Source: Rhizobium sp. WSM4643
Lineage (GTDB): Bacteria; Pseudomonadota; Alphaproteobacteria; Rhizobiales; Rhizobiaceae
Reading direction: 5' to 3'
Assembly (NCBI RefSeq): GCF_025152745.1
Contig: NZ_CP104040.1
Location: 3,654,501-3,718,500, forward strand
Length of the DNA stretch: 64,000 nucleotides
The notes under the pieces were generated by a model. The model was not told where the DNA came from. It ran no database searches and saw only the letters and a program-made list of their open reading frames with translations. The position numbers and the translations under genes were made by a program. The stretch's first letter is position 1; each line of letters begins with the position of its first letter. This document shows, piece by piece, positions 15,999 through 19,605 of this stretch.

Positions 15999-16508
15999 AT
16001 GCAAAACACGATTCGCATCGTCGGTATCGATCCCGGGCTTCGCCGCACCGGCTGGGGAATCATCGAGACATCAGGCAATTCCCTGCGGTTTGTGGCGTCC
16101 GGAACCGTGACCTCCGATGGAGACATGGACCTTGCCTCCCGCCTTTGCCAATTGCACGACGGCCTGGCGGAGATCGTCCACAGTTACAAGCCGGACGAGG
16201 CCGCCGTCGAACAGACCTTCGTCAACAAGGATGCGGTGGCGACCCTGAAGCTTGGTCAGGCCCGCGGCATTGCCATGCTGGTACCGGCGCGCGCCGGGCT
16301 GCCGGTCTCCGAATATGCCCCGAACGCCGTGAAGAAGGCCGTCATCGGCGTCGGCCATGGCGAAAAGCAGCAGATCCACATGATGTTGAAGATCCTGATG
16401 CCGAAGGTCGAATTCAAGGGCAACGATGCCGCCGACGCCCTGGCGATCGCCATCTGCCATGCGCATAATCGTGGCAGCAACCGAATGCGGCAGGCATTGG
16501 CCGGATAG
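15999..16508 (+). CDS. ruvC: RuvC, Holliday junction resolvase
   Basis: 169 aa. RNase H-fold nuclease with catalytic acids visible in VGIDPGLRRTGWG (Asp), AAVEQTFVNKD (Glu) and NDAADALAIAICHA (Asp). Cuts Holliday junctions together with RuvAB during recombinational repair. Normally followed closely by ruvA; here a toxin-antitoxin pair of about 670 nt intervenes. Confidence 0.97.
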   Translation: MQNTIRIVGIDPGLRRTGWGIIETSGNSLRFVASGTVTSDGDMDLASRLCQLHDGLAEIVHSYKPDEAAVEQTFVNKDAVATLKLGQARGIAMLVPARAGLPVSEYAPNAVKKAVIGVGHGEKQQIHMMLKILMPKVEFKGNDAADALAIAICHAHNRGSNRMRQALAG

Positions 16509-16511
16509 CTT

Positions 16512-16548
16512 GTTCTTGACTTGTTCCATTGGTAAGGATAATTCTTAC
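16512..16548 (+). promoter_or_regulatory. LexA box, promoter and palindromic operator of the first vapBC pair
   Basis: Three overlapping signals start 4 nt after the ruvC stop. An exact LexA box GTTC-TTGACTT-GTTC spans 16512-16526. Its spacer contains a -35 TTGACT (16516-16521), 17 nt from a -10 TAATTC (16539-16544). A 17-bp palindrome GTAAGGATAATTCTTAC (16532-16548) covers the -10 and is the likely VapB operator. Transcription would serve vapBC1, ruvA and possibly all genes to ruvB. Motifs are seen directly; control by LexA and VapB is inference. Confidence 0.75.
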
Positions 16549-16565
16549 TATGAAGGAGCAACAAG

Positions 16566-16817
16566 ATGCGAGTTACGTCCAAAGGGCAGGTCACCATTCC
16601 TCGTGATCTCAGGGAACTTGTCGGCATCGAGGCCAATAGCGAGGTCATTTTCTCGATAGAGGGCGGCAAGCTCGTTCTCTCGCCGAAGAACGGCAAGCAG
16701 GAGATCGAGGATCGGGGCCGCCTGGATCGTTTCATACAGACGATCCGTCGCCTCGAGGGCACTGGCGATCAGGAGATCGATGCCGAAGACCTTATGTCGA
16801 TGACCCGTGATCGCTGA
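16566..16817 (+). CDS. vapB: AbrB/SpoVT-fold antitoxin (VapB-type)
   Basis: 83 aa. The N-terminal VTSKGQVTIPRDLRELVGI is the swapped-hairpin AbrB DNA-binding domain; the acidic C-terminal part (about 45-83) is the toxin-wrapping tail. GAAGGAG lies 5-11 nt upstream. Its TGA overlaps the toxin ATG by one base. Expected to neutralise the PIN toxin and repress the shared promoter. Inserted between ruvC and ruvA. The copy at 17913 is a different paralogue. Confidence 0.9.
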   Translation: MRVTSKGQVTIPRDLRELVGIEANSEVIFSIEGGKLVLSPKNGKQEIEDRGRLDRFIQTIRRLEGTGDQEIDAEDLMSMTRDR

Positions 16818-17230
16818 TGGCCACACTGATCGATACGAACATACTTGTCGATCTGGCCGTGGTCGGTTCGGACTGGCACGGTTGGTCGCGTCGAAAGATG
16901 CTTGACGTCTTCAAAGACGGTCCTGTCCTCATAAACCCGATCATCTATTCAGAATTTTCCGTTCGGTACGACGACGTGGACGAAGTCGATCGACTGCTGC
17001 CGCAGGATGAATTCCGCCGCGAGAATCTGCCTTGGCCGGCTGCATTCGCCGCCGCTGCGGCCTTCCGGCTTTACCGTCGCGCCGGCGGTGGACGCGAACG
17101 GGTCTTGCCCGATTTCTTCATCGGCGCGCATGCGGCGATAAGGGGCTACAGAATTTTGACCCGCGATCCCAGCGGATACCGCTCCTATTTCCCCTCCGTT
17201 GACCTTATAACCCCCGAAACGCATCCTTGA
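16817..17230 (+). CDS. vapC: PIN-domain toxin (VapC-type ribonuclease)
   Basis: 137 aa. PIN domain with acidic active-site residues at LIDTNILVD (Asp6), YSEFSV (Glu near 45) and LPDFFIGAHAAI (Asp near 99), then a late RILTRDPSGYRSYFP motif typical of this VapC group. Family members cleave tRNA or rRNA in the cytoplasm. Start codon overlaps the antitoxin stop (TGATG). ruvA begins 13 nt after its stop, so both probably share one mRNA. No frameshift or missing catalytic residue, so it is presumably active. Confidence 0.9.
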   Translation: MATLIDTNILVDLAVVGSDWHGWSRRKMLDVFKDGPVLINPIIYSEFSVRYDDVDEVDRLLPQDEFRRENLPWPAAFAAAAAFRLYRRAGGGRERVLPDFFIGAHAAIRGYRILTRDPSGYRSYFPSVDLITPETHP

Positions 17231-17243
17231 GAGACCGCGACCC

Positions 17244-17858: not shown

Positions 17859-17863
17859 TCTCC

Positions 17864-17904
17864 TTGAATATATCGCAATTCCTTACTAAACTCGAATGGT
17901 AAGG
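17864..17904 (+). promoter_or_regulatory. Promoter and operator of the second vapBC pair
   Basis: Directly after the ruvA stop: -35 TTGAAT (17864-17869), 17 nt, -10 TAAACT (17887-17892). The -10 lies between inverted CCTTAC (17881-17886) and GTAAGG (17899-17904) half-sites. The half-site GTAAG is shared with the operator of the first pair although the spacing differs. The right half-site overlaps the Shine-Dalgarno AAGGAG of the antitoxin. Confidence 0.55.
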
Positions 17905-17912
17905 AGATCCGC

Positions 17913-18173
17913 ATGAATATCTACTACGGTACGATGACATCGAAGGGCCAGACAACAATTCCGGCTGAAGTTCGTGAATTGCTGAATCTGAAGTCCGGCG
18001 ACAGGATCCGCTACATCAACCGCGATGGCGAAATCATCATGAAAGCCAAGAACAAACGCGCCATCGACCTGGCAGGCAAGTTTCACGATCCGAACCGACC
18101 GACGATCACTTTGACGCAAATGGACGAGGCGATTGGGGAAGCCATCGCCGATCACGTAACCAGTGCAAGATGA
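17913..18173 (+). CDS. vapB: AbrB/SpoVT-fold antitoxin, second copy
   Basis: 86 aa. MTSKGQTTIPAEVRELLNLKSG is the AbrB domain; C-terminal HDPNRPTITLTQMDEAIGEA resembles the toxin-binding tail of VapB-type partners. It shares the TSKGQ-TIP core with the antitoxin at 16566 but differs elsewhere, so the two pairs are probably independent acquisitions and not a recent duplication. Overlaps the next gene by ATGA. Confidence 0.9.
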   Translation: MNIYYGTMTSKGQTTIPAEVRELLNLKSGDRIRYINRDGEIIMKAKNKRAIDLAGKFHDPNRPTITLTQMDEAIGEAIADHVTSAR

Positions 18174-18568
18174 TTGGCCTCGACACCAATATTATGCTGC
18201 GCTTCCTCCTGAAGGACGATGTCGTCCAGACGGAGAAGGTCACAACGCTCTTCGCGAGCCTGTCCGATACGGCACCCGGCTATATCAGTTGCATCACGCT
18301 GATGGAATGCGCGTGGTTCTTGAGACAACGGATCAAGCTGAAGAGAGAACAGATCATGGAGGCGATTTCGGACTTGTTGGACTCGGCCGACCTGATCCTT
18401 GAAGATGAAAGAGTAGTCGAGGAGACGCTCGCAATCATGGTGCGGACGAATGCAGAATTCGCAGATGTCTTCATTGCCCTTCGTAATCGTGATGCGGGTT
18501 GCGTGACAACCAGGACATTCGATGCCCAAGCCGCAAAAACCATACCTGGAATGGAACTTTTGACATGA
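18170..18568 (+). CDS. vapC: PIN-domain toxin, second copy (VapC-type)
   Basis: 132 aa. Active-site acids at MIGLDTNIMLRFLL (Asp5), TLMECAWFLR (Glu near 46) and FADVFIALRNRDAGC (Asp near 100); C-terminal TTRTFDAQAAK matches the MNT/PIN VapC subgroup. Start overlaps the antitoxin stop, and its own TGA overlaps the ruvB ATG (ATGA at 18565-18568). It therefore sits in perfect translational register between ruvA and ruvB. Confidence 0.9.
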   Translation: MIGLDTNIMLRFLLKDDVVQTEKVTTLFASLSDTAPGYISCITLMECAWFLRQRIKLKREQIMEAISDLLDSADLILEDERVVEETLAIMVRTNAEFADVFIALRNRDAGCVTTRTFDAQAAKTIPGMELLT

Positions 18569-19605
18569 GCGAATCCGCCCGCCTGATATCGCCGGAAAAG
18601 CGGGGCGAAGACCTTGATATCACGTTGCGCCCGCAATCGCTGGACGAGTTCACCGGCCAGGCGGAGGCGCGCGCCAATCTCAAGGTCTTCATCGAGGCGG
18701 CGAAAAACCGCGGCGAAGCGCTGGACCATGTGCTCTTCGTCGGGCCGCCCGGCCTCGGCAAGACGACGCTGGCGCAGATCATGGCCAAAGAACTCGGCGT
18801 CAACTTTCGCTCGACCTCCGGCCCTGTTATCGCCAAGGCCGGCGATCTCGCTGCCCTGCTCACCAATCTCGAGGAGCGTGATGTGCTCTTCATCGACGAA
18901 ATCCATCGCCTCAACCCCGCCGTCGAGGAAATCCTCTATCCGGCCATGGAAGATTTCCAGCTCGACCTGATCATCGGGGAAGGCCCTGCCGCTCGCTCGG
19001 TGAAAATCGACCTGTCGAAATTCACGCTGGTGGCGGCCACCACCCGCCTTGGCCTGTTGACGACGCCGCTGCGCGACCGCTTTGGCATTCCGGTGCGCCT
19101 GAGCTTCTACACCGTCGAGGAGCTGGAGCTGATCGTGCGCCGTGGCGCGCGGCTGATGAACCTGCCGATCACCGAGGAGGGCGCCCGCGAGATTGCAAGA
19201 CGCGCCCGCGGCACCCCGCGCATCGCCGGCCGGCTGCTGCGGCGCGTGCGCGACTTTGCCGAGGTGGCAAGGGCGGAAGCCGTCACCCGCGAGATCGCCG
19301 ACGAAGCGCTGACCCGCCTGCTGGTCGACAATGTCGGCTTCGACCAACTCGACAAACGTTACCTCAACATGATCGCGGTCAATTTCGGCGGTGGCCCGGT
19401 CGGCATCGAAACCATCGCCGCCGGCCTTTCCGAGCCGCGCGACGCGATCGAGGACATCATCGAGCCCTATATGATCCAACAGGGTTTTATTCAGCGCACG
19501 CCACGCGGCCGTGTTCTGACCGCAATCGCGTGGAAACATCTGGGAATGCAACCGCCCAAGGATATGGAGGCTGCGCAGTTTCGGCTGTTCCAGGAGGACA
19601 ACTGA
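18565..19605 (+). CDS. ruvB: RuvB, Holliday junction branch-migration ATPase
   Basis: 346 aa. AAA+ motor with Walker A GPPGLGKTTL, Walker B LFIDEIHRL, sensor I AATTRLGLL and arginine finger region LRDRFGI; C-terminal winged-helix about 270-346. Start at 18565 (MSESARLISPEKRGED); upstream frame belongs to vapC. The start lacks a strong Shine-Dalgarno of its own, so it probably depends on ribosomes finishing the toxin gene. Pumps DNA through the RuvA-junction complex. Confidence 0.97.
   Translation: MSESARLISPEKRGEDLDITLRPQSLDEFTGQAEARANLKVFIEAAKNRGEALDHVLFVGPPGLGKTTLAQIMAKELGVNFRSTSGPVIAKAGDLAALLTNLEERDVLFIDEIHRLNPAVEEILYPAMEDFQLDLIIGEGPAARSVKIDLSKFTLVAATTRLGLLTTPLRDRFGIPVRLSFYTVEELELIVRRGARLMNLPITEEGAREIARRARGTPRIAGRLLRRVRDFAEVARAEAVTREIADEALTRLLVDNVGFDQLDKRYLNMIAVNFGGGPVGIETIAAGLSEPRDAIEDIIEPYMIQQGFIQRTPRGRVLTAIAWKHLGMQPPKDMEAAQFRLFQEDN

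What the first reader, a model, noticed from the sequence alone, without database searches (positions are those of the whole stretch)
15999..19605. Two VapBC toxin-antitoxin pairs inserted inside the ruvC-ruvA-ruvB operon
Normally ruvC, ruvA and ruvB are adjacent. Here AbrB-antitoxin/PIN-toxin pairs separate ruvC from ruvA and ruvA from ruvB, both in the same orientation with coupled reading frames. The two pairs differ in sequence, so this locus appears to have received toxin-antitoxin modules twice. It places two RNases in the transcript of Holliday-junction repair. Both pairs keep their catalytic and DNA-binding motifs, so they are probably live. Whether the insertions protect the locus from loss, or tie growth arrest to recombination, is open.
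Basis: partly seen in the sequence, partly recalled or inferred. Interest (0 to 1): 0.78.

Follow-up and report, generated by a model that had tools for sequence, protein, structure and literature searches.

The report
SOS-linked toxin-antitoxin modules inside ruv operon
Two bacterial toxin-antitoxin gene pairs sit at fixed places between the genes for the Holliday-junction repair machine in rhizobia and their kin; the first carries what looks like its own DNA-damage (LexA) switch, so it probably ties toxin control and repair-gene expression together, which would make an old question about why such modules live in core operons directly testable.

Summary
In detail: ruvC-vapB1-vapC1-ruvA-vapB2-vapC2-ruvB, all on +. 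It is not a local oddity. Across the family the same two slots are either filled by a VapBC module of about 730 nt or short. Occupants are slot-specific: all vapC1-type PIN genes found in the gaps lie in the ruvC-ruvA slot, all vapC2-type ones in the ruvA-ruvB slot. Ruv-resident VapC1 proteins separate from 15 homologues found elsewhere (100/99). Slots gain, lose and swap alleles. The vapC2 end probably carries ruvB's ribosome-binding site. Best reading: vapBC1 is an SOS-controlled toxin-antitoxin module whose promoter also feeds ruvA and ruvB. LexA-controlled toxin-antitoxin systems are known (Caulobacter HigBA, also with its SOS promoter inserted before a conserved gene), so this is a new variant. 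LexA binding, induction and toxicity are untested.

The parts
15941..15955 (+). LexA-like box upstream of ruvC, GTTTTTGTTTTGTTC (7 of 8 half-site bases)
   Evidence: best match within 150 nt upstream of ruvC reaches 7-8 of 8 bases in 134 of 143 filled and 64 of 65 short-slot loci (mostly the same box about 60 nt upstream, in a few loci another place); shuffles reach 7-8 in 12 of 143 and 12 of 65
15999..16508 (+). ruvC
   Evidence: PF02075, TIGR00228
16512..16526 (+). LexA box GTTCTTGACTTGTTC (GTTC-N7-GTTC) of module 1; the -35-like TTGACT (16516-16521) lies inside it
   Evidence: -35 reading is inference
16532..16548 (+). inverted repeat GTAAGGATAATTCTTAC, possible VapB operator, overlapping a -10-like GATAAT
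   Evidence: in this window the arms are only 5 bp, near the shuffle mean of 4.7; operator role inferred from the set of loci
16566..16817 (+). vapB1, AbrB/MazE-type antitoxin
   Evidence: PF04014
16817..17230 (+). vapC1, PIN-domain toxin, slot-1 type
   Evidence: PF01850; acidic residues; fold
17244..17858 (+). ruvA
   Evidence: TIGR00084
17864..17892 (+). promoter-like TTGAAT-17-TAAACT of module 2 (no LexA box)
   Evidence: read from sequence, inference; one search's stricter sigma-70 scan found no site; no LexA box in 80 of 80 filled slot-2 loci of the family
17880..17905 (+). inverted repeat TCCTTAC...GTAAGGA (7-bp arms), probable VapB2 operator
   Evidence: operator role inferred
17913..18173 (+). 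vapB2, AbrB/MazE/PrlF-type antitoxin
   Evidence: PF04014, PF15937
18170..18568 (+). vapC2, PIN-domain toxin, slot-2 type with PGMELL tail
   Evidence: PF01850
18548..18556 (+). GGAATGGAA in the vapC2 tail, probable ribosome-binding site of ruvB
   Evidence: inference from codon bias
18565..19605 (+). ruvB, ATG overlapping the vapC2 stop
   Evidence: TIGR00635, NF000868

Best explanation
vapBC1 is a ruv-resident, LexA-controlled toxin-antitoxin module. Shown: its sequence anatomy, its fixed slot, and a conserved LexA-type box over its promoter region that goes with the module and not with the short slot. Inferred: LexA represses the vapB1 promoter; VapB1(C1) represses it further through the inverted repeat at the -10. 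DNA damage cleaves LexA, so vapB1-vapC1-ruvA (and, through vapBC2, ruvB) are made together, adding an internal SOS promoter to the one before ruvC. When antitoxin is degraded, VapC1 cuts RNA and slows growth while Holliday junctions are processed. vapBC2 has its own LexA-free promoter and operator; its end carries the ribosome-binding site and start overlap of ruvB, so ruvB translation is coupled to vapC2. The two slots are old allelic positions where modules are lost, regained and swapped, probably by homologous recombination in the flanking ruv genes.
For: LexA box in 141 of 144 filled slot-1 loci of the family and 2 of 65 short ones (the stretch searched is longer when filled); two of the three misses (L003=G052, L026=G038) have the exact 15-mer, the third (L078) is a truncated module. 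Exact 15-mer in 103 of 148 Rhizobium genomes, 105 sites, of which 102 lie about 650-750 nt upstream of ruvA (compared by eye); reversed control 0. Outside the family all 17 ruv-linked VapC1 loci keep a box at about the same place, 7 perfect and 10 with one mismatch, with different spacers; non-ruv homologues 0 of 20 perfect, 3 of 20 with one mismatch at scattered places. 0 of 15 other PIN loci of the own genome have a perfect box in 450 nt upstream. GTTC-N7-GTTC is the alphaproteobacterial LexA motif (PMC3323433, PMC12700426; passages). Slot specificity 183 of 183 and 110 of 110 gap ORFs. ruv-linked VapC1 is one side of a branch, 100/99, versus 15 homologues elsewhere. Purifying selection, median dN/dS 0.094 and 0.124. 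ruvB SD constraint: tail Gly codon GGA 53 of 75 versus 99 of 468 in the body. In R. johnstonii 3841 vapB, vapC, ruvA and ruvB are all scored as needed for root attachment at every pH tested (PMC11406972, passages); a toxin gene needed like ruvAB fits polarity within one operon.
Against: No transcript, LexA-binding or toxicity data. The box overlaps the -35-like site, so promoter constraint alone could keep part of it (but spacers vary outside the family). Genomes with a short slot 1 mostly lack the internal box and still have the box before ruvC, so it is not essential. In PMC11406972 vapB has few insertion sites and is put in a later-stage class different from vapC, ruvA and ruvB, and ruvC is not mentioned (0 occurrences), so the operon argument from it is weak. 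In the window the slot-1 inverted repeat is no better than shuffles. 33 of 79 filled slot-2 loci lack the literal GGA(A)TGGA motif. Some non-ruv VapC1 homologues (L432, L436, L437; 170-184 bits) score above some ruv-linked ones and were not in the tree. A single origin of slot-2 VapC is unresolved (5 changes needed, starred branches force 1). Outside the family 23 of 59 measured ruvA-ruvB gaps exceed 300 nt and hold other ORFs, so that junction takes up genes of other kinds too. A 2020 paper seen only as a title in PMC13384398's reference list reports TA transcription induced by stress without toxin activation, so the growth-arrest step is the weakest.
Confidence: 0.66

Rival explanations
1. 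Selfish dual lock: the modules are addiction elements that found a safe harbour. Because they took over the promoter of ruvA and the ribosome-binding site of ruvB, deleting them costs both antitoxin and repair-gene expression. The LexA box is kept only so that ruvAB stay SOS-inducible; the toxins do nothing useful for repair.
For: Slot-2 gaps without a whole module often keep the vapC2 end with the ruvB SD (28 of 125 gaps of 20-300 nt, partial modules included); truncated vapC2 3' ends persist in L082, L170, L171, L098, L255. Patchy occupancy, 24 changes on the ruv tree of which well-supported branches force 10, and allele swaps look like a selfish element's turnover. Slot-1 gaps of 20-180 nt with remnants: 8 of 40.
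Against: Both modules keep catalytic residues under strong purifying selection; a pure promoter-donor role would let vapC decay more often than seen (3 of 141 VapC1 lack D99).
Confidence: 0.4
2. Two recent, independent, functionally neutral insertions in this strain.
For: Relatives within the genus differ in occupancy, though 0 of 8 pairs with ruvA at least 97% identical do.
Against: Slot and type are shared across the family and beyond it; junctions are uniform, with the vapC2 stop overlapping the ruvB ATG in 79 vapC2-type ORFs.
Confidence: 0.03
3. SOS-triggered anti-phage or anti-plasmid device: the module reads DNA damage by invaders through LexA and uses VapC to stop growth; allele diversity reflects an arms race.
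For: Deep allele lineages swapped between related species; SOS link.
Against: No PADLOC match; no phage link was looked for beyond that; TA allele diversity has other causes.
Confidence: 0.12

Closest known systems
HigBA of Caulobacter crescentus (LexA- and HigA-repressed; Kirkpatrick 2016 seen only as a reference entry; PMC13384398, passages)
   Same: A type II TA module in an alphaproteobacterium under LexA, with its SOS promoter inserted upstream of a conserved gene (higX) that is under SOS control only in the few genomes with the insert.
   Different: HigB/HigA are other protein families (recalled); the downstream gene is not a repair gene. Here VapBC, the ruv operon, two slots, a whole family.
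VapBC next to ruvAB in Rhizobium leguminosarum/johnstonii 3841 (RL3987-RL3990; PMC11406972, passages)
   Same: Same slot 1; L044/L200 is that strain's locus (VapC1 lineage II, slot 2 of 83 nt).
   Different: The passages read note adjacency and phenotype only; they do not mention LexA control, slot specificity or spread.
Vibrio ruvCAB with inserted genes and separate LexA sites (PMC3323433, passages and section 7)
   Same: ruvCAB interrupted by inserted genes; independent LexA sites for ruvC and ruvAB in some species.
   Different: The passages do not call the inserted genes TA modules; here the insert itself carries the LexA box.
E. coli dinB-yafNOP (recalled, no call)
   Same: TA genes inside an SOS-controlled DNA-damage operon.
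   Different: Different toxin family and operon.

Membership tests
VapBC type II toxin-antitoxin | Toxin with PIN domain | tested here: met
   PF01850 above cut-off for both; best Foldseek hits of the VapC1 model are VapC structures (3zvk, 4chg, 6a7v among the top ten); VapC2 was not modelled
VapBC type II toxin-antitoxin | Conserved acidic active-site residues | tested here: met
   D6/E46/D99/D117 and D5/E46/D99/D118 in the window; 138 of 141 full-length VapC1 and 77 of 78 VapC2
VapBC type II toxin-antitoxin | Antitoxin gene with DNA-binding domain directly upstream, overlapping | tested here: met
   MazE_antitoxin/AbrB, overlaps of 1 and 4 nt
VapBC type II toxin-antitoxin | Autoregulation through an operator at its promoter | tested here: inconclusive
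   inverted repeats longer than shuffles in both slots over 142 and 73 loci, but the window's own slot-1 repeat is not; binding not testable
VapBC type II toxin-antitoxin | Toxin is an RNase neutralised by the antitoxin | not testable with these tools
   needs experiment
LexA (SOS) regulon of Alphaproteobacteria | GTTC-N7-GTTC in the promoter, conserved in relatives | tested here: met
   for module 1; module 2 lacks it (0 of 80)
LexA (SOS) regulon of Alphaproteobacteria | LexA binding and induction by DNA damage | not testable with these tools
   no expression data available here
HigBA (LexA-controlled TA) | HigB RelE-like toxin, HigA HTH antitoxin (recalled) | tested here: not met
   PIN and MazE/AbrB domains instead

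The most novel reading that the evidence does not exclude
The ruv operon of Rhizobiaceae and kin is a dedicated allelic toxin-antitoxin locus: a ruv-only VapBC lineage with its own LexA switch acts as an SOS checkpoint that pauses growth while Holliday junctions are resolved, and its alleles are exchanged between species by the very recombination machinery whose genes flank it, like a trans-species polymorphism.
Probability: 0.25. Interest if true: 0.86.

Novelty: new variant of a known kind. Interest (0 to 1): 0.7.

Why it matters
Why chromosomal TA modules persist in core operons is a long-standing question, usually argued without a natural experiment. Here one operon offers many natural versions, with the module present, absent, scarred, doubled or swapped, at an exact place, with a candidate switch (LexA) and a defined host function (Holliday-junction processing). 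That makes 'selfish lock' and 'SOS checkpoint' separable by simple promoter and active-site mutants in harmless rhizobia.

Tried and rejected
Two private recent insertions: rejected by the survey. A hotspot inside the family open to any TA: not what was seen, since the occupants are slot-specific; but only vapC1- and vapC2-type profiles were searched in the gaps, and outside the family the ruvA-ruvB gap often holds other ORFs (23 of 59 measured gaps over 300 nt). Ancestral order across the whole order: rejected. All short gaps as scars: not supported; only 8 of 40 slot-1 gaps of 20-180 nt and 28 of 125 slot-2 gaps of 20-300 nt keep a recognisable TA end, and 39 slot-2 gaps carry another motif, TTGGTGTATTG. 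PADLOC gave nothing. The sigma-70 scan found no promoter, so the promoter readings rest on my own reading and on conservation. PDB sequence searches were weak. Plasmid records hold VapC1-like proteins, mostly below 60% identity (133 records, 9 at 60-80%) and VapC2-like ones all below 60% (45 records); no donor was identified. Papers: (vapBC, ruvA, Rhizobium) found PMC11406972 alone; (the last: ruvB, vapC, LexA, 0 papers) showed no report of this arrangement, as far as listings and the passages opened show, in an open-licence library only. PMC1839093 and PMC3108266 (passages) did not give the motif.
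Full report
What is there. The window reads ruvC (15999-16508), vapB1 (16566-16817), vapC1 (16817-17230), ruvA (17244-17858), vapB2 (17913-18173), vapC2 (18170-18568), ruvB (18565-19605), all on +. Pfam and NCBIfam confirm RuvC, RuvA and RuvB, two MazE/AbrB antitoxins and two PIN toxins. Both toxins keep the four acidic residues. A model of VapC1 (mean pLDDT 94.5) matches VapC structures first (3zvk, 4chg; TM 0.72-0.73).

How common it is. ruvA was found in 147 of 148 genomes of the genus, 196 of 199 of the family sample and 119 of 121 of the order sample. 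I fetched part of these: 258 loci of genus and family (80 of them named records), which collapse to 211 with distinct ruvA regions. Of 208 measurable ruvC-ruvA gaps 143 were over 500 nt, and all 143 held a vapC1-type PIN gene. Of 209 measurable ruvA-ruvB gaps 79 were over 500 nt, and 78 held a vapC2-type gene; the other (L137, 906 nt) did not. 57 loci had both filled and 36 had both short.

Slot specificity. With profiles grown from the window's two toxins, 183 gap ORFs matched the vapC1 profile, all in slot 1 and all on +; 110 matched the vapC2 profile, all in slot 2 and on +; none matched both (gaps of 180 nt or more, duplicate loci included). Outside the family, in 66 loci of the order, 38 of 58 measured slot-1 gaps are 60 nt or less (25 are -4) and 28 of 59 measured slot-2 gaps are -4; 23 of 59 slot-2 gaps exceed 300 nt. 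Among the scanned gaps of 300 nt or more three hold vapC1 in slot 1 (L273, L274, L282) and one vapC2 in slot 2 (L296); the other long ones hold other ORFs or none that I identified. A further vapC1 (L275) lies before a ruvA whose ruvC was not in reach. A wider order search added ruv-linked cases in families f14, f16, f23 and f28 for slot 1 and f6 for slot 2. In one search all 28 hits above 160 bits are ruv-linked; of the 19 weaker rows 3 are ruv-linked and 16 are not (my comparison). In one search the 30 best hits all have ruvA and ruvB beside them. Against clean separation: outside the family some ruv-linked slot-2 toxins (L449, L462) score no better than non-ruv ones, and non-ruv VapC1 homologues L432, L436 and L437 score 170-184 bits.

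Lineages and swapping. In a tree of 173 VapC1-type proteins the 158 ruv-linked rows are split from 15 non-ruv rows by a branch with support 100/99 (L432, L436 and L437 were found later and are not in it). Inside the ruv side lie three large deep lineages, each present in the genus Rhizobium, plus L273 with L275; their order is unresolved. Slot-2 toxins are less resolved: 97 ruv rows against 18 others need 5 changes, but well-supported branches force only 1. Occupancy of slot 1 needs 24 changes on a RuvABC tree of 143 rows, of which well-supported branches force 10 (quick method, genus loci and named records thinned to one in four, loci without full bounds dropped). Alleles swap: L002 and L003 (same contigs as R. 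esperanzae CNPSo 668 and R. lentis SEMIA 4036) have ruvA 98.4% identical in DNA but VapC1 39% identical. Identity falls from 96-99% in ruvA to 41-53% across most of the module; ruvC beside it is only 83-90% identical, so ruvA there is itself part of a recombined stretch. Of 8 locus pairs with both VapC1 present and ruvA at least 97% identical, 2 have VapC1 under 60% identical, of 12 at 95-97% none, of 702 at 90-95% 357. None of 8 pairs at 97% or more differs in occupancy. Tandem modules exist (L330 slot 1; L160 and L167 slot 2).

The LexA box. Positions 16512-16526 read GTTCTTGACTTGTTC, the GTTC-N7-GTTC motif of alphaproteobacterial LexA (PMC3323433 and PMC12700426, passages). In the family 141 of 144 filled slot-1 loci have a perfect motif in the first 150 nt of the gap, against 2 of 65 short ones, 1 of 1 of middle length, 0 of 80 filled slot-2 loci and 4 of 210 stretches of 200 nt upstream of ruvC (a short gap offers less room for a chance match). 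Two of the three misses have the exact 15-mer nearby and were missed because my ruvC stop lay beyond it; the third, L078, is a truncated module. In 148 Rhizobium genomes the exact 15-mer occurs 105 times in 103 genomes; by eye, 102 of the 105 lie some 650-750 nt upstream of ruvA on its strand, 3 lie elsewhere (G025, G099, G121), and the reversed control occurs 0 times. In a further set 31 of 32 ruv-linked loci of the family have a perfect box. Outside the family all 17 ruv-linked loci have a box 292-313 nt before vapC: 7 perfect, 10 with one mismatch, with spacers that differ. Of 20 non-ruv homologues 0 have a perfect box and 3 a one-mismatch one at scattered places. None of 15 other PIN loci of this genome has a perfect one. 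A second, weaker box, GTTTTTGTTTTGTTC in the window, stands upstream of ruvC whether slot 1 is filled or not, so SOS control of ruvC looks older and the box in the module an addition; PMC3323433 already reports putative LexA sites at the ruvCAB promoter in this class.

Other control elements. An inverted repeat (GTAAGGATAATTCTTAC in the window; GTAATACC-N5-GGTATTAC in many others) lies between the LexA box and the vapB1 start or over it, and another upstream of vapB2; over 142 and 73 loci the arms are longer than in shuffles (means 7.1 versus 4.7 in slot 1, 6.3 versus 4.9 in slot 2), but the window's own slot-1 arms are 5 bp, no more than shuffles give. The vapC2 tail holds GGAATGGAA before the ruvB ATG. 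Over the set its Gly codon is GGA in 53 of 75 cases against 99 of 468 in the gene body, and its Glu codon GAA in 68 of 80 against 329 of 640, as expected if the tail serves as ruvB's ribosome-binding site; the literal GGA(A)TGGA motif is present in 46 of 79 filled loci. Of 125 slot-2 gaps of 20-300 nt, 28 keep this tail without a whole module.

Activity. 138 of 141 full-length VapC1 and 77 of 78 VapC2 keep all four acidic positions; median dN/dS is 0.094 (284 pairs) and 0.124 (34 pairs), against 0.063 for ruvA. Three VapC1 (L017, L008, L032) have lost D99. In R. johnstonii 3841 (L044/L200) vapB, vapC, ruvA and ruvB are all scored as required for root attachment at each pH tested (PMC11406972, passages). 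A toxin gene required like ruvAB fits polarity on ruvAB, hence co-transcription; this is my inference. Against leaning on it: vapB has few insertion sites and a different later-stage class, and ruvC is not mentioned in the text.

Judgement. What works like what: module 1 is built like the Caulobacter HigBA case, where a TA module with its SOS promoter was inserted before a conserved gene (PMC13384398, passages). By membership both modules are VapBC as far as testable. New here, as far as my searches go, are the ruv operon as a slot-specific home across a family, the LexA box that goes with the ruv-resident VapC1 lineage, and allele swapping at that place. The step from SOS-controlled transcription to toxin-driven growth arrest is inference and the weakest part.

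Noticed in passing
L376 (own genome G000:C1:59100-62500), 606-2863: Another toxin-antitoxin pair inside a core operon: peptide deformylase (def), FitA-like antitoxin, PIN toxin, then methionyl-tRNA formyltransferase (fmt), with the PIN stop overlapping the fmt ORF by 4 nt. VapC toxins that cut initiator tRNA are known (recalled), so a PIN toxin between the initiator-tRNA formylation genes deserves a look.
   Followed up: partly
L160, L167 (slot 2) and L330 (slot 1): Two VapBC modules in tandem in one slot.
   Followed up: partly
L017, L008, L032: VapC1 with D99N, a natural loss of a catalytic residue in an otherwise kept module.
   Followed up: no
ruvA-ruvB gaps of 39 loci, e.g. L006, L014, L074, L081: Short ruvA-ruvB gaps share the motif TTGGTGTATTG; role unknown, perhaps a ruvB promoter.
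   Followed up: no
L261, L262, L265, L267, L279, L281, L295 (other families), ruvA-ruvB gap: ORFs of about 120-175 aa, several membrane-protein-like by eye, sit between ruvA and ruvB in other families; not identified.
   Followed up: no
L286, ruvA-ruvB gap, minus strand: A 92-aa ORF that reads like a BrnT toxin (label recalled, not searched) in a ruvA-ruvB gap of another family: perhaps a different TA type at the same junction.
   Followed up: no
L220: A record titled MAG: Arenimonas sp. carries a Rhizobiaceae-like ruv locus with both slots filled, so the bin is probably mislabelled or mixed.
   Followed up: no
window 3767-3781: The only other perfect LexA-type repeat in the window, GAACTCCTGAAGAAC; context not examined.
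   Followed up: no
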